64,000 nt of DNA, from assembly GCA_021234155.1 (NCBI GenBank), contig JAJEKV010000013.1, positions 14,051,877 to 14,115,876 of the forward strand, written 5' to 3'. Positions within the stretch are counted from its first letter, which is position 1; the number at the start of each line of letters is the position of its first letter. This stretch comes from Isoetes taiwanensis (lineage: Eukaryota; Streptophyta; Lycopodiopsida; Isoetales; Isoetaceae). The notes beneath the pieces were generated by a model. That model saw only the letters and a program-made list of their open reading frames with translations, did not search any database and had not been told where the DNA came from. Position numbers and translations under genes: made by a program. This document shows positions 15,524-60,960 of this stretch, piece by piece.

Positions 15524-22530
<7,007 letters not shown>

Positions 22531-31725: not shown

Positions 31726-31791
31726 ATGGAGGGAGAAAATGTGCCACTTCCCACAGCCACCAGCTATGGAGGAAGCCGGAGAAGAGGATAG
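31726..31791 (+). CDS. Upstream ORF overlapping the TOC start
   Basis: ATG at 31726 opens a 21-codon frame (start MEGENVPLP) that ends at TAG 31789-31791, overlapping the first 50 nt of the main ORF in another frame. With GGATGG context it could capture ribosomes and lower or redirect initiation, possibly to the second in-frame ATG of the main frame at 31766, which also lies inside it. Translation is not shown by sequence. Confidence 0.4.
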   Translation: MEGENVPLPTATSYGGSRRRG

Positions 31792-34021
31792 CCATAGCCA
31801 ATCCGCACCAAGTATCCTCCATTTTCTACCCATTTCTAGTCTCCGAGCCGCTGCATCTCCCCCCCCATCTCGACCAGCCCCTCCTTCAGACATGGGCGAC
31901 GAACTCTGTGACTTGATGCAGGCAATTAGGGTTAAATTTTTGCGACTTGTGTACAGGCTCGGCGAATCGGCTCATACAGGTGTGGTTGCTCAGGTTTTGT
32001 ATCGTTTAGAATTGGCAGAACAGCTTAGGGTCGGACAAACAGGAGGACATGCAGGAGTTAGTCGATCTGGAGGTTTTATGAAGGCCAACGCCTTGGCTAT
32101 GGAGCAGGAAGCAGAATCAGGTGAATTAGATTTTACTTGTACAATGATGCTCATTGGAAAAACTGGTGTTGGAAAGAGTTCTACTGTGAATAGTTTGTTT
32201 GATGAGAAGGATAGAGCTCCTACTAGTTCTTTTGAAAAGGCTACCAGAAAGGTACAGTTATTTGAAGGTGTTGTTAAGGGGACTAAATTAAGAATTATTG
32301 ATACGCCTGGGTTGTCAGGATCTCTGGCAGATCGGAAGGAAAATGAGAAGACTTTGAGAGGCATAAAGAGATTTGTTCGGCGTTATCGACCAGATATTGT
32401 GCTTTATTTTGACAGGTTAGATATGCAGGGTAGAGACCTAGGGGACCTGCATTTGCTCAATTCAATTACCAATATCCTTGGATCTGCAGTTTGGTTTAAT
32501 ATGATTGTTGTATTGACTCATGCTGCTTCAGCTCCTCCTGATGGTCCAGATGGTGTACCTCTTAGTTATGAGATGGCAGTTGAGCATCATTCCCATATTA
32601 TTCAGCAAATGATTAGGCAGGCTGCAATGGATACAAGGTTGTTGAATCCAGTCTTAATGGTTGAGAATCATTCTGACTGCAACACTAATAGGGCAGGGGA
32701 GAGAATGTTGCCCAATGGACAGGTATGGAGGCCTCAGTTGCTACTGCTGTGCTTTGCATCCAAGATCCTAACAGAAGCCAATGCACTGCTTAAGTTGAAG
32801 GATAATACACTCGGTAGGCCTGCTGATAGAAGAGGTAGAGTACCTACGTTGCCATTGTTGCTTTCTTCTATTCTCCAGCCCAGATCATTGTTAAAAAATT
32901 CTGAAGAAGATACAGGAGGCCTGGATGAATTTGATGAAGACCCAGATGATGCAGATAATTCGGATGGAGAAGCAGATTATGATGAGCTGCCACCATTTCG
33001 TAGATTGTCTAGAGACGAATTGAACCAATTGGATAGGAGAAACAGGACTTTGTATTTTGAGGAGCTTGCATTGAGAGAGAAACTTTTCCAAAGGAAGCAA
33101 TGGAAACAAGAGCTAAGAAGGCGAAAAGAAAGAAGGAAAAACATATCAGGGAAGACTGATGATGAAGTTAAGGAAAATGAACATGGTGAAGAGGATAACA
33201 ACCCAATACCAATGGCATTTCCTGACAACTCTATACCACCAACATTTGGTTCAGATGACCCATCTTATAGATATCGTTATCTGGAATCTAAAAGTCACTT
33301 GGTGGTACGGCCAGTTTTGGGAAACCAGGGATGGGACCATGACAGCGGATATGATGGTGTCAATGTAGAGGCATTACTTGTGTTTAGAAAAAAGTATCCA
33401 GGATCTCTGATGGGGCAGATCATAAAAGACAAGCAAGATTCAAACGTGCGCCTGGAGTGCTCAACATCTTTGGCACATAAAGATGGAAAAACTACAATTG
33501 CAGGTCTTGACATGCAGACAGTTGGAACCGAGCCTTCTTATACATTAAGGACAGAAACCAGATTTTACAATTCAGGATGGAATAAGGCTGTTGCTGGTTT
33601 AGCCATGTCCATCTTAGGAGGGAAAATTGCTGCAGGTATGAAGCTGGAGGATAGGGTGCTCATAGGAAAGAGACTTAAACTCCTGGTTAATGCCGGGGCC
33701 ACTTCAGATGGTGGAGATATCGCATATGGTGGTTCTCTTGAGGCCACCTTGAAGGATAGAGATTATCCAATTAATCAAGTTTGTCATACAGCTGGATTGT
33801 CAATTATGAATTGGCATGGAGATATGTCAATTGGTGCAAACCTTCAATCTCAGTTTGTCCTTGCAAGGACATTGACCACGGTTCATGCTAACTTAAACAA
33901 TCAAGGAGCTGGGCAGATAAGCATAAAGGCTTCTAGTTCTGAACAGTTGTACATGGCCTTCATTGGCATCATTCCTTTCGTGAACTCTTTTCTGAACTGG
34001 CTATCAAGTCAAGGAAAATAA
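31739..34021 (+). CDS. TOC159-family chloroplast preprotein-import GTPase, TOC90-like
   Basis: Outer-envelope receptor GTPase of the chloroplast import translocon. The 760-residue frame has no intron. Residues 1-130 are a short Pro/Ser/Ala-rich N-terminus without the long acidic A domain of TOC159/132/120, so by length it resembles TOC90. The AIG1/TOC GTPase domain follows: P-loop GKTGVGKSS at 140-148, DTPG at 188-191, LTHAAS near 259-264 (G4), VENH at 308-311 (G5). Residues 388-415 are very acidic, and 422-470 a charged helix rich in Arg/Lys. The M domain, which anchors the protein without a classical membrane helix, starts near 500 with GWDHDSGYDG at 531-540. Start at 31739 is the first in-frame ATG; 31766 (codon 10) is the alternative. 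Sequence looks intact and under selection. Assignment to the family is firm; equivalence to TOC90 rather than a truncated TOC120/132 type is not. Confidence 0.93.
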   Translation: MCHFPQPPAMEEAGEEDSHSQSAPSILHFLPISSLRAAASPPPSRPAPPSDMGDELCDLMQAIRVKFLRLVYRLGESAHTGVVAQVLYRLELAEQLRVGQTGGHAGVSRSGGFMKANALAMEQEAESGELDFTCTMMLIGKTGVGKSSTVNSLFDEKDRAPTSSFEKATRKVQLFEGVVKGTKLRIIDTPGLSGSLADRKENEKTLRGIKRFVRRYRPDIVLYFDRLDMQGRDLGDLHLLNSITNILGSAVWFNMIVVLTHAASAPPDGPDGVPLSYEMAVEHHSHIIQQMIRQAAMDTRLLNPVLMVENHSDCNTNRAGERMLPNGQVWRPQLLLLCFASKILTEANALLKLKDNTLGRPADRRGRVPTLPLLLSSILQPRSLLKNSEEDTGGLDEFDEDPDDADNSDGEADYDELPPFRRLSRDELNQLDRRNRTLYFEELALREKLFQRKQWKQELRRRKERRKNISGKTDDEVKENEHGEEDNNPIPMAFPDNSIPPTFGSDDPSYRYRYLESKSHLVVRPVLGNQGWDHDSGYDGVNVEALLVFRKKYPGSLMGQIIKDKQDSNVRLECSTSLAHKDGKTTIAGLDMQTVGTEPSYTLRTETRFYNSGWNKAVAGLAMSILGGKIAAGMKLEDRVLIGKRLKLLVNAGATSDGGDIAYGGSLEATLKDRDYPINQVCHTAGLSIMNWHGDMSIGANLQSQFVLARTLTTVHANLNNQGAGQISIKASSSEQLYMAFIGIIPFVNSFLNWLSSQGK

Positions 34022-41964: not shown

Positions 41965-42649
41965 GACTTTTAAACTCGGCTTTTATGATGAAGTCCAGCC
42001 CCATATACTTACTCCAAGTCATTACTGATGTATATGTGGGTTTACTCTTAAACTATAGAGTCTCTTGACAATTTGAACATGCAGATAGATTACACTTGAT
42101 AATTGATTTAGAGTCTATTCATTCTGAAGCAAAATTTTTGTGTTTATGTTAATATTTGCAGCCAAACCTCATCTTCACACTGTTAAATCTTAAATGCACA
42201 TAAAGAAAGGCATAGGCTGAAGCGTTTTATGTTCCAGGTAAAATATTCATCTTTCTTCGTGGTTGCATTGTAGTAATGCATAAGATCTACAAAACTTTCA
42301 TCTCTTAGGACTGAAAAGGTTTGCTCAGTCTTATCTGCTGTAGTTTTCATTTCTTTGAAAATTTTAAACTTACCTAATATAATTGTACAAGTAGTCTGCT
42401 AAGACCTTTTGCTATTTCGTCAATAAATTGCATGCTTTCCTGCTTTTTTCAAATACTGTTAGCACATTCTAAATTCCATTGCTTTAATCACACAGGGTTC
42501 ATTGAAGGACGTCGGCCTTGCCTTCCTCATGGCTTCATAAGAAACCTATGGTTGAGAAGTTCTAACATGTTTATAGCATGCGCAGACCGGCATATAAAAT
42601 GCATCAAAGACATATTCAAGCTTAGGCTACACATGAAATGCAGGCATTT

Positions 42650-44329
42650 TGTGACGTTCCACGTATTTATACGGTATACGTAACGTATTTATATGGTAAT
42701 TATACGGTATACCTATAAATGTACTGACACGTCACCCGATAAAGGTACGCCATCATGGGGTATTGTAACATAGGGGGTTGACCTAGAAGGGATTAAATTA
42801 GCTATGCTAATTTAATCATTAAGGATAATAACCTAGGGATTAATATTAAATGGGTTAATTAGACCAATAAATGCTTTGGGAAGGCGCCACCTGGCCTAAT
42901 TCGATTGGCCAGCATGGGGATTTCCAAATTGGGCTGTCAACCTGATCCCTATTGCTAATTGACTCCCAAAATTCGTCCAAGAAGGAGCAGGAGCTGAGCG
43001 CCTACCCCTGTCACGCTGAGCGCCACCAGACCAAGTACTTTTTACCTGTGTAGCTGAAGTTGAACACCAAGATCAAGAAGATGGAGATCCCCAACGACAA
43101 TGGATCGAAACAAACACAGGTGGGTGGCTAGTGTAGTTGTGAATTCTAGGATAAGCCCTGTTGGGTTTTTTGTTTGGGTTGTGGTCTATTCTCTCTTTGT
43201 GTTTACTCGTAGGAACTAACCCTTGATTGTAAAGGTAGGTTCTCTCTATATATTTCGATCGGGTTCTCGCTTGTAATGGATGGATTGGTGGTTGTTAGCC
43301 TAGTGTTACTCTGGAAATGGGGAATTAAGGGGGTAGAGACCTCGAGGCTATTTATTGTAGTATGCTCCTAGATAGAGCCCCCTGTATTATCCCGTCATAT
43401 ATGCGGCTGTGCACAAGAGCCCACCGGTCATAGATGCTATGGTAACCGGCTTAGCACCGGACAAGGAACACAAGTGGTGAAGTGGAGGTGGGGTCTTGCA
43501 CGAACATAAAAGGCTCCTGGGACTCCTATAGCGAGCTAGGGCGATAGCCGGTCCACGAGGAGGGCGGGTATGGGTCCGACACTCCCCAGGTGGGAAGGTG
43601 TGACCCGTATGGGGCACCTTGCACTTTGAGTAGATTTAGGGCGCAGTAAGCCTGCATGCGGATGCGGGGTCGCTGATGCGTGCGCGTATTCTCTAGCTTC
43701 GCCCATGGAGCCTTTGTGATTCTCGAAGGGGACGCCTTCCCGACCTGCCTCATCGGACCAGAGGCTTCATGAACCCGGAGTAGGCTCAGCGAGGATGATG
43801 CCTCGAGCCTGCGTCTCCGAGGAAGGCTATAGCGGCGCCATAGCGTGAATTGAGCCATCCGCAAAGTGTGCATGGGAGGGGCGGATGGAGTGGACAACCC
43901 TAGCCAATGTTCTATGCCCCAAGCGCCATGTCAAGATTAAATGTCGCTGATCTCTTGAGGCCCGGCCGTCGGTCGATCCTCACCGGAGTGCGGACGGGGT
44001 AGAACCATGGGTTTGGGGTGTTTTCTTAGGTTTAGATGCATATTCTTTGCCGTTGGTATTTGGATGGATATGCCACCCTTCGTGGTGGTTATTTATATGT
44101 GATTTATCTTTTGTGTGCTAACCCTTGTATTCACGCTTCCCATGACGTAGGAGCCCCATTGAAGGCGTGGGCGAATGACCCCTTCGTGTCCTTCTTTTCG
44201 GGCATCATTATTATAGATGGCCCGAAATAGACGGAGGGAGCCCCGCCATGGCGAAGTTGGTCGCCATGGGAGGGGAAAGTCCCGTATGTATACGTCCGGA
44301 GGGTCGATATGTTCGGGTGGAGCGCCACG
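42650..44329 (+). repeat. 5' LTR of the 13.3-kb element
   Basis: About 1,680 bp. It contains a CTCTCTATATATTTCG TATA-like segment near 43235. It aligns along its full length with 54280-55953 but with many short indels, often in GC-rich places. The left target duplication CATTT is at 42645-42649. Confidence 0.93.
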
Positions 44330-44330
44330 C

Positions 44331-44345
44331 TGGTATCGAGCATGG
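44331..44345 (+). other. Primer binding site (iMet type, diverged)
   Basis: TGGTATCGAGCATGG one base after the 5' LTR resembles the TGGTATCAGAGC site of the other element, with one base lost. Confidence 0.75.
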
Positions 44346-44493
44346 TTCTGGGAAGCCAAACTATTGCACTGGCCACATACTAACTCGATAGATCGTTAGC
44401 TAGAGAGTGAGGATTTTTGAGTAGTATGAGATTTGGGGTGGAGTATTAGATGTCGTCATGATTGCTTTAACGTGGTTTAAGAGTAAATAAGAG

Positions 44494-44499
44494 GTGAGT
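44494..44499 (+). promoter_or_regulatory. Candidate leader splice donor
   Basis: AAGAG|GTGAGT is a near-consensus donor in the untranslated leader, upstream of every ORF of the element. Together with acceptors before ORFs at 44916, 46539, 48198 and 48923 it would allow spliced mRNAs for each ORF. This is inference from signals. Confidence 0.4.
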
Positions 44500-44518
44500 A
44501 CCCGGTACCAAACCCTAA

Positions 44519-44690
44519 CCCTAAGTGGCGGGCAGGGGGTACCCGGGTGTCATTTGGCGCAGAGAGAAACCTCGGGGTAGGGGTGCCCGCCAAAAAAAAA
44601 AAAAAAAAAAACCCTAAGTGGCGGGGCGGGCTGGGGTACCGGGCCACTGGCGCCAAATGGGCGACGTCGAGGTAGGGGGTGCCCGCCACC
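44519..44690 (+). repeat. Duplicated leader segment separated by A20
   Basis: A CCCTAAGTGGCGGGC...GGTGCCCGCC unit is present at 44519-44591 and again at 44612-44688, with 20 A residues between (44592-44611). The layout suggests that a polyadenylated leader was joined to another copy, for example by template switching. Confidence 0.75.
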
Positions 44691-44917
44691 TCGAAAAGCG
44701 CGCTCCGCCACTTTTTCATAAAAAGTTTTTTTAGGGTTAAAATTTTAAAAGTGACTTTTTCTTTCACTTTTCTAGAATACCTAGCGCCCTTTTGAGCTCC
44801 GCCTAGCCGCCATAGCCGCCGGAACTAGAAGGAGGCCTCCGCCATAGCCAAACCTCGGCCTTCACCTTCTTCCCCCAAGCGCCTGCCCAGCGGCCGCCTA
44901 GCGCCTACCTTTCAAGG

Positions 44918-45730
44918 ATGGAGACACCCAAGCAAGTCTATAAGCGCAAACCTCGTCATTCTCAAACCCCTATAGAGTTCTTAATGGCTGAGCTGATGCC
45001 ACAACAAAACCCAGCGCCAGACGCAGAAGCAAAAACTGAAGAAATACTAGAATATTTCGTGAAGCGCTTCTACGAAGGGGTCAGAATACCATACCCGCTC
45101 TTTTGCTACAATGAGCGTTTTGTATTTAAGCTCAACGCCATTCGGGAGACCTGCATGGTAGTTGAACAGGAAGATGGCGTCCAGAAGTATGCCCGGTTCT
45201 TCCCGCCAGCAGGGGATGAACAAGCTGAGGAGGAGGCCCTACAAACGCAGGCCCAAAACAGTTTGCAAATGGCCCAAGAGGCGGACCTACAGTGGCTAGC
45301 ATTGGATGATCCGGCTTCAGGATACCGCTACCTGGGAAACGGCATGTGCCTCTTTGATGGGGGAGCCTACACTCTCCCATCGTTTTCATATGAAGAGGAG
45401 ACCAACCGTATCCTCTGGGAAGCAGGATCACCCTCGTATTTCACAGATCACTTTCAGCGGGCTGTTGAACGAGACATGCAAGCTAATCCTCCACGTTACT
45501 TCATAGAGCTTACAAGAAGAACAGAGATTAGAATAGCTAAAGAGAAGCAAGCAGAGGAGCAAGCCACACCGGGCAAGAAGTACGTAAGGCAAACACAGCT
45601 TGATCTGAGGAGGCCGCCAAGCTTCGGAGGATACTATTCATCAAAGAAATGTAGAACAAGAGCAAAATCAAGAGAATGCGGACGGCAAGAGGAAAGAGCA
45701 AGAGAGGCAACCGGGCCGGAAGGAGCCTAA
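44918..45730 (+). CDS. Element ORFa: unknown basic/acidic protein preceding the H3 domain
   Basis: The 270-codon frame starts METPKQVYKRKPRH; a TTTCAAG acceptor-like sequence ends at 44916, directly before the ATG. The middle has Gln/Glu-rich stretches and aromatic segments (EYFVKRFYEGVRIPYPLFCY; SGYRYLGNGMCLFDGG). I do not recognise a family. From about 45640 the better coding frame shifts by one and continues as Lys/Arg-rich sequence ([22 protein letters not shown]) past the stop at 45728-45730, then a second shift leads into the H3-type frame open from 45782. The full span 44918-46270 is 1,353 nt, a multiple of three, so two compensating indels in one ancestral ORF of about 450 codons fit. 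The ancestral product would be a histone H3 domain with a long novel N-terminus. Confidence 0.75.
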   Translation: METPKQVYKRKPRHSQTPIEFLMAELMPQQNPAPDAEAKTEEILEYFVKRFYEGVRIPYPLFCYNERFVFKLNAIRETCMVVEQEDGVQKYARFFPPAGDEQAEEEALQTQAQNSLQMAQEADLQWLALDDPASGYRYLGNGMCLFDGGAYTLPSFSYEEETNRILWEAGSPSYFTDHFQRAVERDMQANPPRYFIELTRRTEIRIAKEKQAEEQATPGKKYVRQTQLDLRRPPSFGGYYSSKKCRTRAKSRECGRQEERAREATGPEGA

Positions 45731-45781
45731 TCGAGGAAGGAAGAGGAAGAAAGGCATCGGCAAGAGCAACCACCGCAGTAA

Positions 45782-46270
45782 GTCCGTGTTCCCGCCCAAG
45801 ACAAAAAGAAGACACCCCAAAGATCTGGTGTTCAGTATAAGGATCAGCTTAGGGCTCGAGGAGGAATCGCTAAGGCTGCAAGGGATAACCGGCGGGACAA
45901 CATCATCCGTAAAGCCCGGCATCCTGGAACAGCAGGGAAGACTCTACCCGGAGCTGCACCCCAACCTAGGAGGAGGCATCGTTACAAGCCTGGTACCGTG
46001 GCACTTCGAGAGATAAGGAAGTACCAGAAATCCACTGAGTTTCTGTTACGAAAACTTCCTTTCCAGCGTCTGGTCCGAGAGATTGCCCAAGAATTTAAGA
46101 CGGACCTTCGTTTTCAAACTCATGCCATTCTAGCACTACAGGAGGCGGCCGAGGCTTACTTGGTGGCCCTCTTTGGCGATGCAAACCTATGTGCCATCCA
46201 TGCCAAGCGAGTAACCATCATGACAAAAGACCTACAGTTAGCACGCCGGATCCGTGGGGAACGGTCATAA
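45782..46270 (+). CDS. Histone H3.3-type domain encoded inside the LTR retrotransposon
   Basis: From the His codon at 45977 (H3 His39) to the stop at 46268-46270 there are 97 codons, colinear with H3 residues 39-135 without an indel: [20 protein letters not shown], the [13 protein letters not shown] helix, FKTDLRFQ loop, [10 protein letters not shown] helix and [13 protein letters not shown] through RRIRGERS. About 13 conservative substitutions are seen (for example Arg42Lys, Gly102Ala, Glu105Gly, Pro121Thr, Ala135Ser). Tyr41, His87 and Leu90 are the plant H3.3-type states. Lys56, Lys79, Cys110 and His113 are kept. There is no CENH3-type loop-1 insertion. The canonical tail (K4, K9, K27 motifs) is replaced by an unrelated Arg/Lys/Pro-rich sequence (for example [28 protein letters not shown]). 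The frame is open from 45782 but has no ATG at its start, which supports an original fusion with ORFa. Identification as H3 is certain; function in the element is unknown. Confidence 0.93.
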
Positions 46271-46541
46271 TTATGTACATCACAATTTTGTATCTATGTA
46301 AATCGGTATATATAATAATACAAAACTGTTTTGACTTCTTATTTTGAATTGTGAATTTTCCTACAATTAAAAAATAAATAAATAAATAAAATAAAAATAA
46401 TAATAACTGAAAAAAAAAAAAGAGATGATGAGCTGGCGCCTCGAACGCCGTGCCCAGCAAGTTAAATACTCAGATTCATTTTTAGGGTTTCATCATTTCT
46501 TACTCCTGTTTCCTTCTTCCTCCCATCTTCCGCCTGCAGTG
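46271..46541 (+). other. AT-rich spacer with an A tract behind the H3 domain
   Basis: Starts like a 3' UTR (TATA/TAAT-rich) and has AAATAAATAAATAAATAAAATAAAAATAATAATAAC and then a 12-A run ending near 46421. It ends with a long pyrimidine tract and CTGCAG at 46534-46539, a strong splice acceptor 2 nt before the next ATG. The A tract may mark the poly(A) tail of a captured transcript. Confidence 0.5.
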
Positions 46542-47951
46542 ATGGACTACGCTGGCCGACTAGCATGGTACATGGGAGGCGAGCAATGGGATCCCCAGGT
46601 TCCTTACCCTCTCTTGGATCCTATGTTGCAGAGTTCAGTCGACCTCATCGACAATATGCGCGCCCACCCTGACTATGCGACCTTTGTAGAGTTCTATGAT
46701 GAGGAAATATTGCCTGAAGCGGAATTCTTTGGGGAACCGCCCCAACCTTATCTTCACAGAGATATTGTGGAGCATATGTTGGGAGATGATCGCCACAGCT
46801 ATGACATCCTCAAGGGCATCATCAGACGTGCTAAGCACGCTCCCATTATCGATTGTGGCTCTAATGGGCTATACTTTGAAGCCCAGTTTGCCCTTGCTCT
46901 TATTATGGACAGGTATGTTGATGGTACTGACACCGCTTTAGAGCAAGCTAAGGCCCCACTTCCTCCAGATCCAGAGGAGGACGAGCAGATAAACTTTGCT
47001 GATTTTGAACGATGGAAGGAGTTAGCTAAAGAGAGGCCTTTACCTCGTAGTAAGGGCCAAGCACTTGTGGGATTGAGTTCGCTTGCTACCATCAAGGTTG
47101 GGGATCAAGATTACTTGCTGCTGAGCGACATTCAATGGGCGTATCAGCATATCGCCAATAAGGGTAAGCAGAGGACCGCTCACCTTCTTTATGAGCTGGC
47201 CGAATATTGTCAGGGTCAGCATGATTTCATTGATTACTCTCGCCCCAATTATGCGCCAGAGATACATCAACTGCTCAACTATCAACCCCTTGATGTTGAG
47301 CCTATCAGCACACTCTTGTCCTTGCGCCAGTTAATGATTCAGGGTACCCCATCTTCAGTTCCTGAATCGGCTTTCCAGGCTACGGGGCCACATGTGCCCA
47401 ACATCAACGACGTCGTCGTCAAGCTGGAGGACGACCCAACCATGGAGGATTTATGTGATGAGAGTCAGTATGCTCAGGAGGAGAAGGATTTTGCCATGGA
47501 GGAGGAGCTGCCCCGGAACTTGGAGTCCGAGTTGGCCTCTTCAACCCATCCGATGGTTCAGGGGTTGAAATGCCATATTACTCGATTCTTCCTGTCGGCT
47601 TTTACAAGCAGACAGGTTCTCTTCTTTGCTAAGGCAATTGCCCCTGAAGCAGAGGCGGCTGTATGGGCATTAAGGGCACTTTCCACCACAGCCGGCCACA
47701 AGAAGTTAGCTCCTAACCTTGAGCAGATCATCCTAGTGAACCGTGATCTTGCCATTGCAGTGTTTGACCATGAGATTGGTTCTTGGATGAACATGAGTCT
47801 GCTGGTTGCGGCGCCATTGGCTACAAATGTTCCTCCAGAAATAGCTTCATCAGCTGCCTCATCAGTTAATCCTAGCGTGTTACTCCTACAGCATCGACCA
47901 GAGCCCCAGTTTGATACTCAAGCACAAGATGTTGACGGATCGACCTCTTAG
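46542..47951 (+). CDS. Element ORFb: unknown 469-residue protein
   Basis: The open frame begins at 46425 but the ATG at 46542 (MDYAGRLAWYMGGEQWDP) is preferred: it sits 2 nt after a strong acceptor (TTCCGCCTGCAG) and the first 39 codons before it look like UTR. The product is acidic, with an N-terminal part rich in Tyr/Phe/Asp (ATFVEFYDEEILPEAEFFGE), a central helical part (LLSDIQWAYQHIANKGKQRT), a highly acidic linker (VVKLEDDPTMEDLCDESQY) and a C-terminal helical part (SRQVLFFAKAIAPEAEAAVW). No zinc, protease, membrane or envelope features are seen. I recognise no family. The long undisturbed frame, while pol is broken, suggests selection until recently. Confidence 0.75.
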   Translation: MDYAGRLAWYMGGEQWDPQVPYPLLDPMLQSSVDLIDNMRAHPDYATFVEFYDEEILPEAEFFGEPPQPYLHRDIVEHMLGDDRHSYDILKGIIRRAKHAPIIDCGSNGLYFEAQFALALIMDRYVDGTDTALEQAKAPLPPDPEEDEQINFADFERWKELAKERPLPRSKGQALVGLSSLATIKVGDQDYLLLSDIQWAYQHIANKGKQRTAHLLYELAEYCQGQHDFIDYSRPNYAPEIHQLLNYQPLDVEPISTLLSLRQLMIQGTPSSVPESAFQATGPHVPNINDVVVKLEDDPTMEDLCDESQYAQEEKDFAMEEELPRNLESELASSTHPMVQGLKCHITRFFLSAFTSRQVLFFAKAIAPEAEAAVWALRALSTTAGHKKLAPNLEQIILVNRDLAIAVFDHEIGSWMNMSLLVAAPLATNVPPEIASSAASSVNPSVLLLQHRPEPQFDTQAQDVDGSTS

Positions 47952-48198
47952 TTTTAGGTTTCATTGGGTCATCGTATGAAATTTTGTTAATTTTGATTGG
48001 CATTACCTCTAGTGGGCCAACACCAAAATCTATGTACTGTTTTCAATTTTATATATATTCAGGATATCTTCTTATGTTTCTTGCACTGTTGAAAACCATT
48101 GAATTGTTTTCTCCTTTCAATGCTTAATTATCTTCCTTAAAGTTCGAGTGGAAGGAAATTGTTTCAATGTATATATAATTATTCCTGTCGTCTTGCAG
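47952..48198 (+). other. Spacer or intron between ORFb and ORFc
   Basis: AT-rich, non-coding, ending with TTATTCCTGTCGTCTTGCAG, a good splice acceptor at 48198. Confidence 0.5.
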
Positions 48199-48659
48199 AA
48201 GAAACACTTGAGGAATACCAGGACAGGATCACCGATCTGATAAGAATGGATGAACAGGGACCTTCTGAACAGGACTATGGGGAACGATACAACGAGTATC
48301 CTGAACGGGAAGTTGACGATGACATAGCGGAGCTTAGGGTGCCGGAACAACCTTATGATCCTGACAAGGGCATGGAAGCAGTTACTCTTCTTCGAGAACG
48401 TGCTTACGATGATCTGAAATGGACTCTTTCCCGTACTTGGGATTATTGGAATATGACCCCACATCAAGCTTTTGATGATGCTAATGATCATCTCTGGCAA
48501 ATCTTCTACGCACTGCGAAGGCTCTTCAACCTTCTGATTATTAGCCCCACTTGGGATTATCAACCCGTTATTATCCAGGCTTGGGCACGTTACAAGCTCG
48601 TCAGAGCTGTGCGTGAGAGTGTGCGCTATGCCGTCATGTATCCCTACGCAAACCCTTAA
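48159..48659 (+). CDS. Element ORFc: unknown acidic protein, possibly spliced to gag
   Basis: The open frame has an ATG at 48159, but an acceptor at 48198 suggests that the real exon starts at 48199 in phase 1 (EETLEEYQDRITDLIRMDEQ). The product is acidic, with Trp/Tyr-rich helices (YDDLKWTLSRTWDYWN; DHLWQIFYALRRLFNLL). I recognise no family. A donor GC|GTGAGA at 48613 has phase 1 and matches the phase-1 acceptor before gag at 48923, so ORFc could be joined in frame to Gag by removing 48613-48923. Otherwise it ends at 48659. Confidence 0.6.
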   Translation: MFQCIYNYSCRLAEETLEEYQDRITDLIRMDEQGPSEQDYGERYNEYPEREVDDDIAELRVPEQPYDPDKGMEAVTLLRERAYDDLKWTLSRTWDYWNMTPHQAFDDANDHLWQIFYALRRLFNLLIISPTWDYQPVIIQAWARYKLVRAVRESVRYAVMYPYANP

Positions 48660-48910
48660 GCCGCAATTTCCAGTTTTGTGTGTTCCTATGCTTCACTATG
48701 GCTAGGAAATGGCTTGTATCAGGCCTCTTTATGTATTATATAACTATAAGTTTATAACTGTGTTCCATATGAACTTCTTTGATGTAACCGTTATCTCGCT
48801 TGTAATTTGAATCTTCCGTCCTTTTTCGTGTTCACTTGTGTTTCTTGATACTACTCAAAATGACTTTGTTATAACACTTACTGTTATCGTACTCTTTCTT
48901 ATATCATCGT
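48660..48910 (+). other. Spacer or intron before gag
   Basis: AT-rich and non-coding. It leads to TTTAATATAG, an acceptor at 48923 just inside the open gag frame. Confidence 0.45.
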
Positions 48911-49681
48911 ATGTTTAATATAGACGGTGCACGCAATGCCGCCTGGCAGACACCCTCAAACGCCAGTCGGTTAACACCCGAACAAGAATTGATGCTGATG
49001 AAAAGACAGTTAGGCGAATTACAGGCCTACGTCTTGCATGCTAACCCACCACAGCATGTACAACAGGATGCACCGGAGTTACCTCCGTTGCCGCCTAGTC
49101 CACCTACACAGCAGCCGTCCCCAACACGAACCAGTCCTGTACCCGTGCGAAAGAGGTCCCACTCTAAACGCCGACGGAGCTCCTCTAGAGACAGTGCCAC
49201 CTCCTCAAAGTCTGCCACTTCAGTGTCATCTGAATCATCCGCATCATCTGGTGGCCATGCAAAGCGCCGAGATAAGGAGTACCGCAAGACAGTTGATACA
49301 ACCATAACTAGTATATGGAAGAATAGGAAATTGGCCCAGTTTGATGGGAAATCTAGAGGCGGCTTGAATGCCGAATCCTGGCTGGACGAAATGAAGGAGT
49401 TCGGCAGGTCCTATGGCATGACAGAGAAGGATACAGGAAAGGTTGCCACCACAAACCTTACCGGAGCTGCCCGTATTTGGTGGAAGGGCTATGCCAGAGC
49501 CAAACATCTGGACAGGAGTAGATGCAACTTCAGAAAGTTTGCCAAGGCCTTCAAATCGCATTATGTGCCTCGTGCACATAAATGCCAGCAGATCCAGACT
49601 TTCTACAGGTTGGAGCAGAAGAGTATGTCCGCATGTGCTTACACGGATGAGTTTATACCGAGACCGTATGTACCGGTATGA
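48911..49681 (+). CDS. gag of the 13.3-kb element (N-terminal part)
   Basis: Starts MFNIDGARNAAW, then a Pro-rich stretch, a basic Ser/Arg-rich stretch (RKRSHSKRRRSSSRDS) and the Retrotrans_gag core: KLAQFDGKSRGGLNAESWLD, LTGAARIWWKGYARA, FAKAFKSHYVPRAHK. The frame breaks near 49665 (TDEFIPRPY), after which sequence such as GVEGYIEGLAPSIKRMV continues in another frame. The nucleocapsid near 50035-50080 has CYMCMRPDTSCENC, a zinc knuckle with Thr in place of His. This copy cannot make full-length Gag. Confidence 0.85.
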   Translation: MFNIDGARNAAWQTPSNASRLTPEQELMLMKRQLGELQAYVLHANPPQHVQQDAPELPPLPPSPPTQQPSPTRTSPVPVRKRSHSKRRRSSSRDSATSSKSATSVSSESSASSGGHAKRRDKEYRKTVDTTITSIWKNRKLAQFDGKSRGGLNAESWLDEMKEFGRSYGMTEKDTGKVATTNLTGAARIWWKGYARAKHLDRSRCNFRKFAKAFKSHYVPRAHKCQQIQTFYRLEQKSMSACAYTDEFIPRPYVPV

Positions 49682-52600
49682 ATGAGAAAAGGGCGTGGAG
49701 GGCTATATTGAGGGTTTGGCACCATCGATCAAACGGATGGTTAAGGCCATCGACCAAATCGGGATAGTGCGGCCGAGGCTAAAGCATTGAGCCTCGAGGA
49801 GGACATACCAAGGAATCAAGATCCGCCCCGCTCCTTACTCGCAGACCACGGCCGCCCACACCTTACAAACCCCGCTCTCCAAGTCAGGGGCCCTCTTAGC
49901 GTAACTCTTCACGGCCGCCGTGAGAAGAAAGTCGCTTTTAGCACGCCGGATAAGCGAGCAATTTGGTAAGGAAGTTCAAACCCTCTTGCAGTCCATTCCT
50001 AAAGAGGCCGAAGAGAACACCGCTAGGGATAAGGCATGTTACATGTGTATGAGGCCGGACACTTCATGCGAGAATTGCCCATATGTTACCCGTGACGCCC
50101 GGTGGCCATGGCCGACCTTTGGCGGGATGATATTGAGTCAACATTACTGGCCGACGAGGACGCCCCGAAGTACATTCACGGTCGCGCCTCATATCCTTGC
50201 AGCTATAGAAACCGGCAATCTTTGAAAGTCAGCCTGCTGTCATTTCCACCATAGGCCAAATAGACAGTAAGCCTTTTGTAATTCTTATGGATACGGGGAG
50301 TACACATAATTTTGCTTCTCCTAGAATGGCCCAGGTCCTATAACTGGAAACCCTAAGGTCACGACCGAGACCTGTCACTTTAGCCAGTGGTAAGGTTAGA
50401 CATACTCATGGTCGTCGCATCAACCTTAAGATGCAGTTGCCAGGCGCACCAGTTGCTATGGGTGCCGAGTTAATGGATATTGGCAAATACGACCTCATTG
50501 TTGGAATGGAATTCTTGGCATCTGCAAAAGCCAACATAGACTGCGAGAAGAGAGAAGTTACCTTCAACGCAGCTAATGGAGCCCGTGTAACTATAAAAGG
50601 TGAACCATTCAACCCTATCATGCAGTCTATGTCCATTCGACAGTTAGATAAAGCTATACGCAAGCAAAAGCTCTTCTGCGTTATTCGACTTGCTTCCATT
50701 GAGTCAGATGCTAAGCAAAACCAAGTAATCAACGCCTTGCCACAGGGGATTGCCAGTATTCTCCATGAATTTAGCGATCTTTTCCCAGACGAGATCCAGA
50801 AGCTTCCTCCTTTTAGAGGGGTAGAATGTGAGATAGCTTTAGAGCCAGGCACTAAGCCTACCAGCAAGGCCCCGTACCGGATGAGTCCCCCAGAGTTGGC
50901 AGAGCTTAAGAAGCAACTTCAAGAGCTGCTAAACCTAGGTTTTATTCGACCTAGCGTTTAGCCCTTTGGCTCCCCTATTCTTTTGTAAAGAAAAAAGGGC
51001 GGCTCCTTGATAATGTGTATTGATTATCGGCAACTCAACAAGCATACCATCAAAAATCGCTATGCTTTGCCGAGAGCAGATGATCTAATGGATCAGTTGC
51101 AAGGGGCCAAATATTTTTCAAAGATTGACCTTCGCTCGGGATATCATCAGATAAGGATTAAAGAGGAGGACATCCATAAATCTGCTTTTCGCACTAGATA
51201 TGGGCATTATGAGTTTACCGTTATGCCTTTCGGATTAACTAATGCCCCATAGCGTTTATGCGGTTAATGAGCGGTGTTTTCCGACAATACTTGGATGATT
51301 TTGTTGTCATTTTCTTTGGACGACATTCTCATCTACAGTAAGACTCTAGAAGAGCATGAGAAACATCTTAAATTGGCCCTACAAAAGTTAAGACGTCATC
51401 AGCTTTTTGCCAAGTTCTCTAAGTGCAAGTTTGCCACTCCAAAGGTTGACTATTTGGGCCATATCATTTCTGCAGAGGGAATTGCTACAGATCCAGCAAA
51501 AATAGAGGCCGTAAGGGAATGGCCTATTCCAGAAAATGTCTCCGAGGTCCGAAGTTTCTTGGGGCTAGGGGATACTACCTAAAATTTGTGAAGGATTTTG
51601 CAAAGATTGCAGTCCCTCTTACAAATCGACCAAGCATGAGAAGGTAAAGGATTGGATGGAGCACTGGAAGACTAAGGTTCAGGGAAGTTTCCAGCAGCTT
51701 AAAGATGCCTTAACCTCAGCACCCGTTCTCACGTTGCCCGATCCTGATAAGGATAAACTAGTGGCCACAGATGCAAGTAAAATCGCCACTGGTGGGGTTC
51801 TAATGCAGGAGGGGAGGGTTATTGCTTATGATTCAAAGAAGATGAACGAGACGGAACAGCGATATCCTACCCATGATCAGGAGTTGTTAGCTGTTGTTCG
51901 CGCCTTGCGAATATGGAGACACTACCTCCTTGGTAAAAGATTCCAATTGGACACGGATCACCAAAGTCTCCGTTATTTATCCACCCAACCGAACCTCAAC
52001 CTCCGTCAGAGGAGATGGATGGAATGTCTTGAAGAATATGATTTTGACATCATGTATAAGCCTGGAAAGCACAATGTGGTTGCGGATGCATTGTCACGCC
52101 ACCCCCAGAAACCGAACCCATTGTAATGCAATTTCTACACTCACAAGTGAGTTTGGGAAACAGATAGAACAGACCTTGGCCACGGATCCCGAGTTCTGTG
52201 AAATCTGGGCTAGTTTGAGTAAGGAAGCACGCACAGATAAAGAACGCGAAGCTTTCCGTTCATATAAGAAAGAGGGCAATTTGTTGTATCACAAGGATAA
52301 GTTGTGTGTACCTCGACCTCCGGGTGCGAAAAGTTAATCCTCCATGACACGCACAACAGCCCTATAGCTGGACATGCGGGTTTTATGAAGACCTATTTTA
52401 AAATCCGCTCTAGTTACTTTTGGCCTTCCATGAAGAAGGATATTGCTAGATACATTAAGCAGTGTCAAGTGTGTCAGCAAACCAAGGCGGAGCAACTAAG
52501 AGTTCCAGGAGAGCTGCAGCCTTTGGATGTGCCCCATAAAATGGGAAGTAATAACCATGGATTTCATTGTGGGCCTTCCACCGAACTCTCCGTGGCTATG

Positions 52601-53695
52601 ATGCACTAATGGTGGTCGCCGACAAATTATAAAAAATGGCTCACTTCTTGCCATGTCGCATTAACCGCAAACCGCCTTCGACACCGCCTTGCTTTTCGCA
52701 AAGGAGATCTTCAGGTTGCACGGAATGCCACGGGTTATTGTATCTGACAGGGATCCCAAATTTGTAAGTGCATTCTGGAAGGATTTCTTCACCACCATCC
52801 AGACCAAGCTTGCTATGAGTACCGCATATCATCCTCAGACAGATGGTCAGACAGAGCGTACCAACCGTATCATAGAGGATATGCTACTTAAGCTAATATG
52901 TGTGGAGTAAGCAATCCCAATGGGGGTGACTATATTTATCTAGTAGAGTTTGCCTATAACAAAAGATGAAACGAGGAGTCTTCCAGGATGTCTCCTTTCA
53001 TGATAAATTATGGTTATCAATGCCTTACTCCTGACACATGGCACAACCCCGTGTCGAAAGTGGAGGTTTCTCAACAACTCCTCCTGGAGATGCAAGCTTT
53101 GGTCGACGAGGTACGTGGTTACTTGCTAGCTGCACGCAGTCGTCAAAAGAGTGTAGCAGATAAGCACAGGACCCCACGAGTCTTCCAGGTGGGTGAATCG
53201 GTTTGGCTTAAGATTAAAGTAAAACAAGCCAAGCTTAAGATTGGTAATTGCAAAAAGTTGGCACCCAGATGGGCTGGACCGTTCAAAATCACGGAACGTA
53301 TTGGGGAGCAAGCATATTGCCTGGACTTGCCACCCCGCTTAAAGATCCACAAGGTTTTTCATGTGAGTCTTCTAAAGCAGCACACCCCTGATCCAGAGGA
53401 GGTTTTGGAAACCCCAACCCTCCTGGAAATGACAGAGGAGCAGCTAGAGATAGTACCTGAAGCTCTTCTTGATCGAGCTTATAAACAGACCAGGAGGACT
53501 CAAATGCTGCAATACTTAGTCAAGTGGAAACACTTGCCAGTGGAGGATGCTACGTGGGTGATGCAAACAGATCTTGAGAAGCACTACCCGGATTTCATGC
53601 GCGAATCTCAAGGCCGCACCATCAACGATGCTATCAACCCCGCTCCCGGCGGTAAGCTTGAAGACTTGATTCGCCGAGAATCAGTAGAGGGGTAG
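49682..53695 (+). pseudogene. gag 3' end and pol of the 13.3-kb element: PR-RT-RH-IN-chromodomain, broken
   Basis: Protease active site MDTGSTHNF (Asp codon 50290). Prime-side blocks run through 50431-50961 to a stop within the RT start (GFIRPSV*). RT keeps [28 protein letters not shown] and MPFGLTNAP, but stops at 51250-51252 and a frame change at the catalytic FxDD block (about 51316) break it. RNase H (ATDASKIATGGVL through VADALSRH) is at 51740-52110. Integrase zinc region and DDE blocks (SDRDPKF, TDGQTERT) follow with stops between 52320 and 52980; the second-domain start is damaged. The final frame 52988-53695 is long and intact and ends with a chromodomain (LQYLVKWKHLPVEDATW, about 53505-53610). 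The product would act on chromatin target choice. Confidence 0.9.
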
Positions 53696-54267
53696 ATGCA
53701 TCGTAGTTAACAACAGTTACCGATGATGGGATCACCTTCGTGTTCCTTAGGACGTGGTGTACTGTCAATGTGGACACGACCACGAACTGCTTGTAAAGCA
53801 TGAACTTCCTTACGCCGCAATGAATTGCGAATCATAGGCATAATAGGTTCCTTGTAGATAAATTTTCTTTCATTTCTTCTAGGGGGTGGACCCTTCAACC
53901 ACAACCTAATTATTTTTATTTGTGAAAACTGATATATTGACATGTGCAGGCCAGTGAGCAGTACGTGACCTGCCCATGTATAGAGGGTTGCTGATGACCC
54001 GACTTTTCGGATTCGCTTGTTTTACATGTCTTATTTTCGTCGTCTATGATGTTTTAAAATCAGACTCCGTCCTTGAACTTCGTCTGTTGATAAGTTTGTA
54101 AAATGCACCTTGGTGCTGACACTTTGTTATTCTCAACTTCAATGCATTACTGTTTGAAATAATAAGTTATCTTCCTTTCTTAACTATATTCTTCCTAATT
54201 CAGTTTTTTTGTAGGTAACTGTCTCTGATTAATTAACCCCAATGCTGAGGACAGCATTATTTTTTTA
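53696..54267 (+). other. 3' untranslated region of the 13.3-kb element
   Basis: Non-coding between pol and the polypurine tract. An antisense open frame (53707-53943) without motifs is present. Confidence 0.5.
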
Positions 54268-54279
54268 AGGAGGGGAGAA
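54268..54279 (+). other. Polypurine tract of the 13.3-kb element
   Basis: AAGGAGGGGAGAA immediately before the 3' LTR. Confidence 0.85.
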
Positions 54280-55953
54280 TGTGACGTTCCACGTATTTAT
54301 ACAGTATACGTAACGTATTTATATGGTAATTATACGGTATACCTATAAATGTACTGACACGTCACCCGATAAAGGTACGCCATCATGGGGTATTGTAACA
54401 TTGGGGGTTGACCTAGAAGGGATTAAATTAGCTATGCTAATTTAATCATTAAGGATAATAACCTATAATCTAGGGATTAATATTAAATGGGTTAATTAGA
54501 CCAATAAATGCTTTGGGAAGGCCACACCGGCCTAATTGATTGGCCATGATGGGGATTTCCAAATTGGAACATCCACACGATCCCTATTGCTAATTGACTC
54601 CCAAAATTCGTCCAAGAAGGAGCAGGAGCTGGCCCTACCCATCACCCGTGCGCCACCGGACCAAGTACTTTTTAATTGTAGGTAGCTGAAGTTGAACACC
54701 AAGATCAAGAAGATGGAGATCCCCAGCGACAATGGATCGAAAAAACAAGTGGGTAGCTAGTGTAGTTGTGAATTCTAGGATAAGCGCCCCTGTTGGGCAC
54801 CTGTTTGGGTTGTGGTCTATTCTCTCTTTGTGTTTACTCGTAGGAACTAACCCTTGATTGTAAAGGTAGGTTCTCTATATATTTCGATTCGGGTTACGCT
54901 TTGTAATGGATGGATTGGTGGTTGTTAGCCTAGTGTTACTCTGGAAATGGGGAATTAAGGGGGGGTAGAGACCTCTGAGGCTATTTATTGTAGTATGCTC
55001 CTAGATAGAGCCCTGTATTATCCCGTCATATGCGGCCTGTGCACAAGAGCCCACCGGGTCATAGATGCTATAACGGCTTAGCACCGCACAAGGAACACAA
55101 GTGGTGAAGTGGAGGTCGGGTCTTGCCACGAACATAAAAGGCTCCTGGGACTACTATAGCGAGCTAGACCTGATAGCCGGTCACGTAGAGGGCCGGGTAT
55201 GGGTCTGACACTCCCTGGGTGGGAAGGTGTGACCCGTATGGGGCACCTTGCACTTTGAGTAGATTTAGGGCGCAGTAAGATGCACGGATGCGGGGTCGCT
55301 GATGCGGCCGTGCGTATTCTCTAGCTCTCGCCCATGGAGCCCTTTGATGATTACGGAAGGGGACGCTTCCACCTGCCTCATCGGACGGGGGCTTCATGAA
55401 CCCCCGGAGTAGGCTCAGCCGGGGTGATGCCTCGAGCCTGCGTCTCGGGAAGGCTATAGCGGCGCCATAGCGTGAATTGAGCCATCCGCAAAGTGTGCAC
55501 GGGGGGAGGGGCGGATGGAGTGGACAACCCTAGCCAATGTTCTATGCCGCCAACGCCATGTCAAGATTCTCGTCTGCTGATCTCTTGAGGCCCAGTAGTC
55601 GGTCGATCCTCACCGAGTCCGGATAGGGGGTAGAACCATGGGTTTGGGGTGTTTTCTTAGGTTTAGATGCATATTCTTTGCCGTTGGTATTTGGATGGAT
55701 ATGCCACCCTTCGTGGTGGTTATTTATATGTGATTTATGCTGTGTGCTAACCCTTGTATTCACGCTTCCGCGACGTAGGAGCCCCATTGAAGGCGTGGGC
55801 CGAATGACCCCTTCGTGTCCTTCTTTCGGGCATCGTATTATAGATGGCCCGAAATAGACGGAGGGCCCTGCTCATGGCGCGTTGGTCGCCATGGGAGGGG
55901 AAAGTCCCCGTATGTATACGTCCGAGGGTCGTATATGTTCAGGGAGCGTCACA
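54280..55953 (+). repeat. 3' LTR of the 13.3-kb element
   Basis: About 1,674 bp, TGTGACG...CGTCACA, homologous throughout to 42650-44329. Followed by the right CATTT target duplication at 55954-55958. Confidence 0.93.
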
Positions 55954-55958
55954 CATTT

Positions 55959-58669: not shown

Positions 58670-60960
58670 TCAACTCATGTCCTCATGAGTTATGGGAAAG
58701 GTCGGATATAACTTCTTGAACTTGTCAGCGTCTTCCCATGTCGCATCCTCTTGCGGATATTGGACTAGGTATTTCTCTATGGTGCGATTCCTCAGTACCC
58801 TAGTATCAACTCGCAAAATTGCTTGTGGCTTTATTGCGAGTGTCTCTTCTACTGCAACCAAATTATCCTGAGGCAATATATGTGATGGATCACTGAGATA
58901 CTTGCGTAAGTTGCTAACATGGAATACATTATGGACCTTGATGTCAATAGGCAATTCCAAACGGTATGCAGCCTTGCCGATCCTCTGTATGATTCTAAAA
59001 GGACCTGCATATCTAGGTGCTAGTTTGCCAGCCTTCTTAAACTTCAATGTACCCTGCTTAGGGTTAATCTTCAGGAACACCATATCATTCTCCTGGAATT
59101 CTAAAGGTCTTCTCTGTTTATCTGCATACTCCTTTTGTCGGTTCTGCGCTTTGGCAATATTTTATCTAATAATTCGGAGCTGTGTCCCAATATCCTCTCC
59201 CATGGTCTGGACCAAATCAATTTTACACTGCGGACTACACCAAGTCAAGGGATATCAGCATTCTTGCCCATATACTGCTTCAAATGGGCTCATCTTTATG
59301 GAATCTTGATACGTATTGTTGTAGGCAAACTCAACTAAATGCAGATAAGATTCCCGAGTGTGCGGATGTTCAGGAACATACATCCGGAGCATGTCCTCGA
59401 CAACCTGCTTAACTCTTTCAACTTGACCATTGGTTTGAGGATGATAGGCTGTACTCATCCGTAATTGGGTTCCAACCCCGTGGAATAATGCTTGCCAAAA
59501 CTAGCCAACAAAGCGCGTGTCTCGGTCTGACACAATAACCTTAGGCATACCATGCAGACGGAATATATCCTTGATAAAAATCTTAGCAATATCTGCAGCA
59601 GTAGCCGTGATTTTGGTTGGCATAAAGTGGGCTTGCTTGGTGAGACGATCCGTTACTACATAGATGGAATCATATCCTGCTCGTGTCTTGGGCAATCCCA
59701 CAATAAAATCCATACCTATACTTTCCCATTTTGTGTCAGGAATATCCAATGGTTGCAATTCCCCTGGAACCTTTTGGTGAGAGGCTTTCACCTTCTGGCA
59801 TGGTAAACATCTGGTTACATAGCTTAAGATTTCCTTCTTCATGCTAGTCCAAAAGAACTGCTTACGGACCTTACGAAGAGTTTTCTAAACTCCTGGATGA
59901 CCCGATACTGGACTATCATGAGCTTCTTTCATAATCTGTTGTTTAAGCTCGGCATTATCTGGTATGCACAACCGATTGTGGTAGAATAACTTGGATGCTT
60001 CAATCTTATAGGGATTCTTGTTTTCTCCTTGCTCAAGTGCTGCTACTATAGGCTGAAAATACGGATCCTCCCGGATCAACTTCGTGAGATTGCTGTCCCA
60101 TTGCGTATTAGCAACACTAACGGCGGCACAGTATGATCGTCGGGACAACGCATCTGCAATTACGTTATCTTTCCCGGGCTGGTACATTATGGTGAGATCA
60201 TACTCCTGTAGTAGTTGCATCCATCGTTTCTGGCGATTATTTAGCTGAGGCTGCGTTAGGAAATACTTAAGACTCTGATGATCAGTCTTGAGGAGAAATC
60301 TTCTACCCAAAAGGTAATGCCTCCATAATTTTAAAGCATGCACACGTGGGTTAGGTAATTCCGTTCAGCTGGATTAAGTTTCTTTGATGCATACGCACAC
60401 ACATGGCCATCTTGTAATAAAGCACATCCAATCCCAGTGCCTGAGGCGTCAGTTACCACACAAAAGTCCCGCTCCATAGATAGAATCTTTAAAATGGGTG
60501 CATGCGTCAGGGCATCTTTTAAGATTTGAAAACTTTGGTCACATACCTCTGACCATTGGAATGCTAACTCTTTTTGAAGTAGGGTGGTCAATGGAGCTGC
60601 TTTCCTGGAAAAATGCTTTACAAACTTGCGATAATATCCAGCTAATCCTATGAATGCCCGGATTTCCCTTACAGATTGAGGTTGCGGCCATTCTTGTATA
60701 GCTTTTACGTTTTCAGGATCCGGCTCAATTCCCTTGTTGGAGACAACATGGCCTAAATAAATCAACTGCTCTTGAGCAAAACTGCATTTGGAAAGCTTAC
60801 CATAAAGCTTATGTTGCCTTAAAAGCTTTAAAACTGAGCGCAAATGTTCAACGTGCTCTTCAAGTGTTTTGGAATAAATCAGAATATCGTCGAAAAAAAC
60901 AAGCACAAATTGGTCAAGATGGGCCCGAAAAATATCATTCATAAGCCTCATAAAAGTAGC
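58670..60960 (-). pseudogene. pol of the - strand copy: RT (partial)-RH-IN-chromodomain
   Basis: RT from [10 protein letters not shown] through the catalytic FFDDILIYS to [13 protein letters not shown]; RNase H with [13 protein letters not shown] and VIADALSRR. A deletion of about 22 bp near 60340 breaks the RT-RNase H frame. The integrase zinc region (59950-59800) and DDE blocks MDFIVGLP, SDRDTRF and NGQVERV are visible, with stops near 59885, 59500 and 59250. The last frame 59083-58670 ends with a chromodomain that is shortened (EKYLVQYPQEDATWEDADKF lacks the usual KWxxxP part). It is not functional. Confidence 0.88.

What the first reader, a model, noticed from the sequence alone, without database searches (positions are those of the whole stretch)
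45782..46270. Histone H3.3-type domain carried inside an LTR retrotransposon
The codons for H3 residues 39-135 are present without indels inside the bounds of a 13.3-kb element whose LTRs and CATTT target duplications enclose it. Tyr41, His87 and Leu90 mark the plant H3.3 type. The tail is not an H3 tail. Changes are conservative and the frame is open although pol is broken, which suggests selection after capture. I know of no described plant retrotransposon that carries a histone gene.
Basis: partly seen in the sequence, partly recalled or inferred. Interest (0 to 1): 0.95.

Follow-up and report, generated by a model that had tools for sequence, protein, structure and literature searches.

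The report
Histone H3 built into plant retrotransposon
A family of jumping genes in a lycophyte plant carries, as the end of one of its own proteins, the core of the histone that packages the plant's DNA, and evolution has kept that histone core almost unchanged, which suggests the jumping gene uses a home-made histone to deal with its host's chromatin.

Summary
The LTR element 42650-55953 carries an H3.3-type core (45977-46267, 97 codons, no indel). In the genome holding the window (1.66 Gb, almost certainly Isoetes taiwanensis), 40 of 40 scored DNA matches to the H3 stretch are nearly full length. A plant H3.3 protein scored 15 host genes and 135 further places; all 25 of these examined are variant cores. 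In 8 of 8 larger copies H3 sits between ORF1 and ORF2. It is no separate histone gene: in 5 of 18 copies one open frame of 419-455 aa runs through ORF1, linker and H3. Element cores form one clade apart from host H3 (support 0.999), so one ancient capture is likely, and evolve under purifying selection (internal branches 231 synonymous, 23 non-synonymous). The window copy is interrupted, possibly partly by assembly error. Function is inferred: an H3.3-like subunit that pairs with host H4 and makes silencing-resistant nucleosomes or tethers element proteins. My literature searches found none like it. Whether H3-less relatives exist stayed untested.

The parts
42645..42649 (.). target-site duplication CATTT, 5' copy
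   Evidence: matches 55954-55958
42650..44329 (+). 5' LTR (TGTGACG...)
   Evidence: (90.9% over 1718 columns to 54280-55952)
44331..44345 (+). primer-binding site resembling the complement of initiator Met tRNA (label recalled)
   Evidence: sequence just inside the 5' LTR
44918..45730 (+). ORF1: N-terminal domain and part of the linker of the ORF1-H3 protein, interrupted in this copy
   Evidence: uninterrupted with H3 in other copies; dN/dS about 0.07-0.09 in two pairs and 0.16 in the closest pair
45782..46270 (+). basic tail plus H3.3-type core, C-terminal end of the ORF1-H3 protein
45977..46267 (+). 97-codon H3 core (H3 residues 39-135)
46271..46421 (+). AT-rich stretch (GC 0.16) ending in A12: possible trace of a polyadenylated H3 mRNA end, or ordinary inter-ORF sequence
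46539..47951 (+). ORF2, 470 aa from this ATG, no Pfam match; one homologue P0122 (40% over 459 aa)
48204..48659 (+). ORF3, no family above its cut-off; preceded by a splice-acceptor-like TTGCAG
48911..49681 (+). gag (Retrotrans_gag, Ty3_capsid), open frame ends early
50344..50961 (+). aspartic protease part (RVP_2) and what follows it
51007..52126 (+). reverse transcriptase and RNase H, in broken frames
52970..53695 (+). integrase C-terminus with SH3_Tf2-1 and chromodomain
54267..54279 (+). polypurine tract
54280..55953 (+). 3' LTR (ends ...CGTCACA)
55954..55958 (.). target-site duplication CATTT, 3' copy

Best explanation
A chromodomain-bearing Ty3/gypsy LTR retrotransposon of Isoetes captured the core of a host H3.3 transcript, most likely once and long ago, and fused it to the C-terminus of an extra protein encoded upstream of gag. 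The fusion gene (ORF1 domain of about 230 aa, long charged linker, basic tail, H3 core; about 451 aa) is now a standard, selected gene of the family. Shown: shared position, uninterrupted frame in several copies, one clade, purifying selection. Inferred: the H3 part still folds, pairs with host H4 and is handled by the H3.3 deposition machinery, so that the ORF1-H3 protein enters nucleosomes. Because it lacks the H3 tail with K4, K9, K27 and K36, such nucleosomes could not take the usual silencing marks. The likeliest use is to keep the element's own chromatin open, or to display the ORF1 part on chromatin as a landing site for element proteins. Rough odds: selected family gene 0.96; enters nucleosomes 0.6; anti-silencing or tethering as the purpose 0.5.
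For: Same order ORF1-H3-ORF2-ORF3-gag-integrase/chromodomain in 8 of 8 further copies (both LTRs found in five, a second partial LTR in one, one LTR only in two; ORF2 is split by extra sequence in three). ATG-to-stop ORF1-H3 frame uninterrupted at 451 aa in 3, 455 aa in 1 and 419 aa in a distant copy, of 18 copies with upstream sequence. 46 of the 135 non-host rows have open frames of 400 aa or more. Selection: 18 of 40 copies have an ungapped stop-free core, 12 of these 18 (window included) protein-identical, mean pairwise dN 0.0068, dS 0.124. On the tree of 55 distinct cores, element internal branches 231 syn/23 non, terminal 189/34, stem 19/5, host 244/18. Isolated substitutions in 39 copies by codon position, core 21/12/126. 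ORF1 and linker are also constrained. One capture: element-host split support 0.999; 124L in 41 of 41, 86T, 89I and 107A in 40 of 41, 102A and 105G in 39 of 41 distinct cores. H3 contacts kept: 65 of 97 positions identical in all 41 and in host H3.3; of 17 positions that I recall as DNA-, H4- or H3-contacting, 16 are invariant and one (129) differs in one core. Residues 87 and 90 were shown to be essential for plant H3.3 incorporation (PMC3342937, passage).
Against: No expression, protein or chromatin data. In 21 of 41 distinct cores residue 87 is Phe, not His, so H3.3-specific deposition may not hold for all. G102A, E105G, T107A, I124L (and Ala125 in 22 of 41) cluster and may alter nucleosome or chaperone contacts. 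A 350-aa N-terminal extension could hinder incorporation. In 13 of 18 copies, the window's among them, the fused frame is interrupted or cut short in this assembly, and 22 of 40 copies lack an intact core. My two structure predictions, of ORF1 and ORF2, were uninformative (mean pLDDT 37.6 and 32.2); the H3 core was not modelled. One core (L095) lacks most shared derived residues, so a second capture for that one is not excluded.
Confidence: 0.6

Rival explanations
1. The H3 core condenses or protects the element's RNA or cDNA inside the particle or pre-integration complex, like the histones of Marseilleviridae (recalled), rather than acting on host chromatin.
For: The recalled DNA-contacting residues are kept; the tail is strongly basic; the linker is long and charged, possibly coiled coil (my reading).
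Against: An H3 core alone does not wrap DNA without H4 (recalled), and none of the element ORFs scanned matched another histone. Residue 87 stays His in 19 of 41 distinct cores.
Confidence: 0.17
2. Decoy: the protein binds H4 or H3 chaperones and starves or poisons host silencing without being deposited.
For: Changes shared by nearly all cores (102, 105, 107, 124) with the recalled H4 and H3-H3' contact residues kept.
Against: Constraint also on recalled DNA-contact residues, which a decoy would not need.
Confidence: 0.13
3. The H3 fold was reused as a plain dimerisation or protein-binding module with no histone role.
For: The fusion to a linker and an unrelated domain.
Against: The 25 examined cores and the window still match H3.3 at 83-86 of 97 residues although synonymous sites are saturated in 449 of 820 element pairs; a plain module should drift more, as ORF1 did (31% identity to the distant copy L076).
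Confidence: 0.08
4. Passenger: a transduced host fragment without function, or a host retrocopy that landed in one element.
For: AT-rich stretch and A12 after the stop look like an mRNA end, as expected at capture; many copies are interrupted.
Against:: many copies, the same place, purifying selection.
Confidence: 0.01

Closest known systems
Gypsy_Pa_2799 elements of Phalaenopsis with an additional ORF encoding an m6A RNA demethylase (2-ODD) domain (PMC9289625, passages seen)
   Same: A plant Ty3/gypsy family with an extra ORF from a host-type gene, retained over many copies and likely to counter a host pathway.
   Different: Different captured function; not a histone.
Additional ORFs of plant LTR retrotransposons such as Athila, Bagy2, Grande, RIRE2, Retand (PMC7264820, part 1 of 3 of the text read)
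   Same: Extra ORFs beside gag-pol in most copies of a family.
   Different: Those described there are mostly env-like or antisense, of unknown origin, and between pol and the 3' LTR; here three sense ORFs lie before gag and one ends in H3.
Bdelloid rotifer LTR elements with additional ORFs of DEDDy and GDSL type (PMC5408684, passages seen)
   Same: Family-wide extra ORFs with enzymatic origin.
   Different: No histone; the word histone does not occur in that main text.
Plant histone H3.3
   Same: Window core identical at 85 of 97 to the Arabidopsis type and 86 of 97 to the host's H3.3; Tyr41/His87/Leu90.
   Different: No H3 N-terminal tail; fused behind about 350 aa; shared changes at 86, 89, 102, 105, 107, 124.
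Viral histones of Marseilleviridae and other giant viruses (recalled, no call)
   Same: Histone genes borne by a selfish element.
   Different: There histone doublets form virus nucleosomes; here a lone H3 core fused to an unrelated protein.

Membership tests
LTR retrotransposon | paired LTRs, target-site duplication, PBS, PPT, gag and pol | tested here: met
Chromovirus (Ty3/gypsy, Metaviridae) | order RT-RNase H-integrase with a chromodomain at the integrase C-terminus | tested here: met
   Chromo E 2.3e-9 behind SH3_Tf2-1 and Integrase_p58_C; the integrase core itself was not scanned
Chromovirus, named plant clade (Tekay, CRM, Galadriel, Reina, Tcn1) | position in an RT or integrase tree | not tested
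   no plant reference set at hand; two of three HP1 cage aromatics look absent (recalled comparison), so a group II chromodomain is likely
Retand and other non-chromovirus gypsy lineages with extra ORFs | non-chromovirus pol | tested here: not met
   chromodomain present
Histone H3.3 (plant) | Tyr41, His87, Leu90 in an ungapped core | tested here: met
   for the window; Phe87 in 21 of 41 distinct element cores
Histone H3.3 (plant) | H3 N-terminal tail with K4, K9, K27, K36 | tested here: not met
CENH3 | divergent core with longer loop 1 (recalled) | tested here: not met
   97-residue core aligns to H3.3 without a gap
Transduced host gene fragment (Bs1 type passenger) | present in one or few copies, no selection as part of the element | tested here: not met

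The most novel reading that the evidence does not exclude
A selfish histone variant: the family encodes a histone H3.3 derivative that enters host nucleosomes with host H4, carries a retrotransposon protein in place of the modifiable tail, and thereby makes silencing-proof chromatin or marks insertion sites. It would have been maintained for so long that synonymous sites are saturated in over half of the compared element pairs (449 of 820).
Probability: 0.5. Interest if true: 0.97.

Novelty: new variant of a known kind. Interest (0 to 1): 0.92.

Why it matters
Transposons are fought with histone marks. A transposon family that makes its own tailless H3.3 core would be a direct way to interfere with histone-based silencing, and it makes testable whether mobile elements can shape nucleosome composition. 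Plant DDM1 is reported to remodel H3 variants in connection with inherited DNA methylation (Lee et al. 2023; only the title was seen, in a reference list), so an element-made H3.3 derivative might hit a known control point. It also gives a natural experiment on which parts of H3 can change over long evolution and still be selected, and it warns that H3 counts in lycophyte genomes may include element genes.

Tried and rejected
CENH3 origin: rejected (ungapped H3.3-type core). Residual H3 tail in the upstream stretch: no signal (151 of 500 shuffles). Target-site duplication of a nested retrocopy around H3: the 15 best exact matches printed were all poly(A), so none was seen. Codon-usage frame analysis pointed to one ORF1-H3 gene, which other copies confirmed; its detail, a long out-of-frame stretch up to about 45790, was only partly right: comparison with other copies leaves a short one. 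Structure prediction of ORF1 and ORF2 was uninformative. Pattern scans found no relative of ORF2 in viral contigs (18, 38) or prokaryote contigs (48), nor of the core in viral contigs (47). No ORF1 homologue with E up to 0.001 among 859 candidates. NG86 with averaged paths overstates non-synonymous changes at Arg, Leu and Ser codons; one search uses the path with fewest. A first dN/dS script and part failed through my own errors and were rerun.

Full report
What is in the sequence. The stretch 45782-46270 on the + strand is open for 162 codons. Its last 97 codons (45977-46267) are histone H3 residues 39-135: Pfam Histone E 3.4e-43, best solved match an H3.3, no indel, 12 differences from Arabidopsis-type H3.3 with Tyr41, His87 and Leu90. 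Among 120 database H3 proteins fetched, most of the changed states are rare (0-1 of 120), except Ile89 (23) and Ser135 (5). The stretch lies inside an LTR element: LTRs at 42650-~44329 and 54280-55953 and CATTT duplications, a primer-binding site and a polypurine tract, gag, protease, RT, RNase H and integrase C-terminus with chromodomain. Between the 5' LTR and gag lie ORF1, the H3 stretch, ORF2 and ORF3; ORF1, ORF2 and ORF3 match no family above its cut-off. The gag-pol frames are broken in several places.

H3 is the end of the ORF1 protein. In the window the H3 frame has no ATG of its own before the core, and ORF1 (ATG 44918) is upstream in the same frame with two stops between. Codon usage suggested one gene (0 of 446 control off-frame windows were as strong and stop-free; the observed window itself has one stop at its edge, and its detail proved only partly right). 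Copies elsewhere in the genome settle it: of 18 copies with upstream sequence, the ATG-to-stop frame runs without interruption through ORF1 and H3 in three at 451 aa, one at 455 aa and one distant copy at 419 aa; in the other 13, the window copy included, the open frame is shorter in this assembly. Of the 135 non-host rows, 46 have open frames of 400 aa or more. The protein reads: a domain of about 230 aa, a long Glu/Arg/Gln-rich linker (possibly coiled coil, my reading), a basic tail without H3 tail similarity, and the H3 core.

It is a family feature. With the H3 stretch as DNA query, 40 of 40 scored matches in G000 were nearly full length at 88-100% identity, from 828 first-look candidates. 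With a plant H3.3 protein, 150 of 9031 loose candidates were scored: 15 are full-length host H3 genes in one block (no intron) at 97-99%, and 135 match at 72-87% from residue 3-36 to 134-136. At least two of the 135 are copies already among the 40. I examined 25 of the 135, five fetched by the tool and 20 picked by hand, not at random; all 25 are variant cores, and the other 110 are classed only by identity and range. In larger pieces of eight copies from the 40, ORF1, H3, ORF2, ORF3, gag and integrase/chromodomain were present in that order in 8 of 8; both LTRs were found in five, a second partial LTR in one, and one LTR only in two; ORF2 is split by extra sequence in three. These copies were found through H3, so the share of family members without it is unknown; the ORF2 search did not complete. 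For L072-L076 only ORF1 was tested (4 of 5 match the window's ORF1, at 26-74% identity), not LTRs or pol.

Selection. Among the 40 copies, 18 have an ungapped stop-free core; 12 of those 18 (window included) are identical in protein; mean pairwise dN 0.0068 and dS 0.124 over 153 pairs. The 22 dropped copies have indels, scrambles or stops in the core. A count that uses 39 copies, dropped ones included, and only isolated substitutions gave 21, 12 and 126 at codon positions 1, 2, 3 in the core. On a tree of 55 distinct cores (41 element, 14 host), element internal branches carry 231 synonymous and 23 non-synonymous changes, terminal branches 189 and 34, the stem 19 and 5, host branches 244 and 18 (about 71 synonymous and 220 non-synonymous sites). 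Constraint on internal branches means selection while the element replicated; the weaker constraint at tips fits decay after insertion. ORF1 and linker are also constrained: for ORF1 dN 0.042 and 0.050 against dS 0.61 and 0.58 between L008 and two copies, and 0.019 against 0.120 in the closest pair. The 12 changes in the window core, one of which is the host state, are more conservative than chance (96-167 of 20000 simulations per setting).

Origin. The element cores split from all host H3 with support 0.999 and the window's subfamily has 0.994. Leu124 is in 41 of 41 distinct cores, Thr86, Ile89 and Ala107 in 40, Ala102 and Gly105 in 39. The host's H3 genes, including its H3.3 (L057), have Glu77, as the commonest element state does, so the source was probably this lineage's own H3.3. 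One core, L095, lacks most of the shared residues and might be separate. Synonymous sites are saturated in 449 of 820 element pairs by the averaged method, so capture is ancient, while the LTRs of five dated copies and of the window differ by 0.2-0.9% isolated substitutions, so the family moved recently. The AT-rich 46271-46409 followed by A12 could be the relic of a polyadenylated mRNA end at the capture junction; this is only suggestive.

Host and data quality. G000 has 1,658,258,908 bases in 1110 contigs; the Isoetes taiwanensis paper gives 1658.30 Mb in 204 scaffolds and 909 contigs from nanopore reads polished with racon and pilon (PMC8566536, passages). The host is therefore almost certainly this lycophyte, although the contig counts differ by three. 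LTR pairs show 15-34 short clustered scrambles beside 2-14 isolated substitutions, enriched in CpG in the window pair, which looks like nanopore consensus error; some frame breaks here may be of that kind. That paper's main text does not contain the word histone.

How it may work. Shown: a selected, family-wide fusion protein whose H3 core keeps the residues that I recall as DNA-, H4- and H3-contacting (16 of 17 checked invariant in 41 cores, the other in 40 of 41). Inferred: pairing with H4 and deposition in nucleosomes. Residues 87 and 90 were shown to be essential for plant H3.3 incorporation (PMC3342937, passage), but Phe87 in 21 of 41 cores shows that this is not uniform. A tailless H3 cannot carry the silencing marks, so anti-silencing or a chromatin tether are the leading uses; packaging and decoy are rivals. 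The element's own integrase chromodomain seems to lack two of three cage aromatics (recalled comparison), so it probably does not read H3K9 methylation in the HP1 way.

What is known. Searches of the paper library (listings of at most 20 papers each) showed no LTR retrotransposon carrying a histone; I read part 1 of 3 of one review (PMC7264820) and passages of PMC9289625, PMC2864245, PMC5408684, PMC12786077. The library lacks most subscription papers and all preprints, so this is not proof of novelty. The closest precedent is the orchid demethylase element. The kind (LTR element with a captured extra ORF) is known; a histone-bearing one appears new.

Noticed in passing
46539-47951: ORF2 encodes a 470-aa protein with no Pfam match and a single database relative (P0122, ENA contig of 3374 bases, 40% identity), so a little-known protein family may exist outside this genome.
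   Followed up: partly
42650-44329 and 54280-55953; L041-L046, L053-L056: LTR pairs differ mainly by clustered short scrambles rather than isolated substitutions, as nanopore consensus error would give; LTR dating from raw identity in this assembly would be misleading.
   Followed up: partly
44517-44688: Pair of about 80-base direct repeats (71% identity) with an A20 run between them (44592-44611), just inside the 5' LTR.
   Followed up: no
16766-21775: Two 240-base direct repeats, 99% identical, enclose long gypsy-like open frames: probably a young 5-kb gypsy element.
   Followed up: no
59829-60961 and 62839-63988: Inverted 1.15-kb copies (96%) within gypsy-like pol frames of opposite orientation.
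   Followed up: no
31718-34021: 767-codon open frame with a TOC159 membrane anchor domain and an AIG1-type GTPase domain.
   Followed up: no
L057-L071: The 15 full-length host H3 genes match in one block without intron and fall into His87 (1), Ser87 (11) and Thr87 (3) types, all with Leu90, so the seed-plant H3.1/H3.3 code at 87/90 is not the same here.
   Followed up: partly
L072-L094 except L075 and L079: A second element subfamily has Phe at H3 position 87 (21 of 41 distinct cores) and Ala at 125 (22 of 41, L096 included), unusual for an H3.
   Followed up: no
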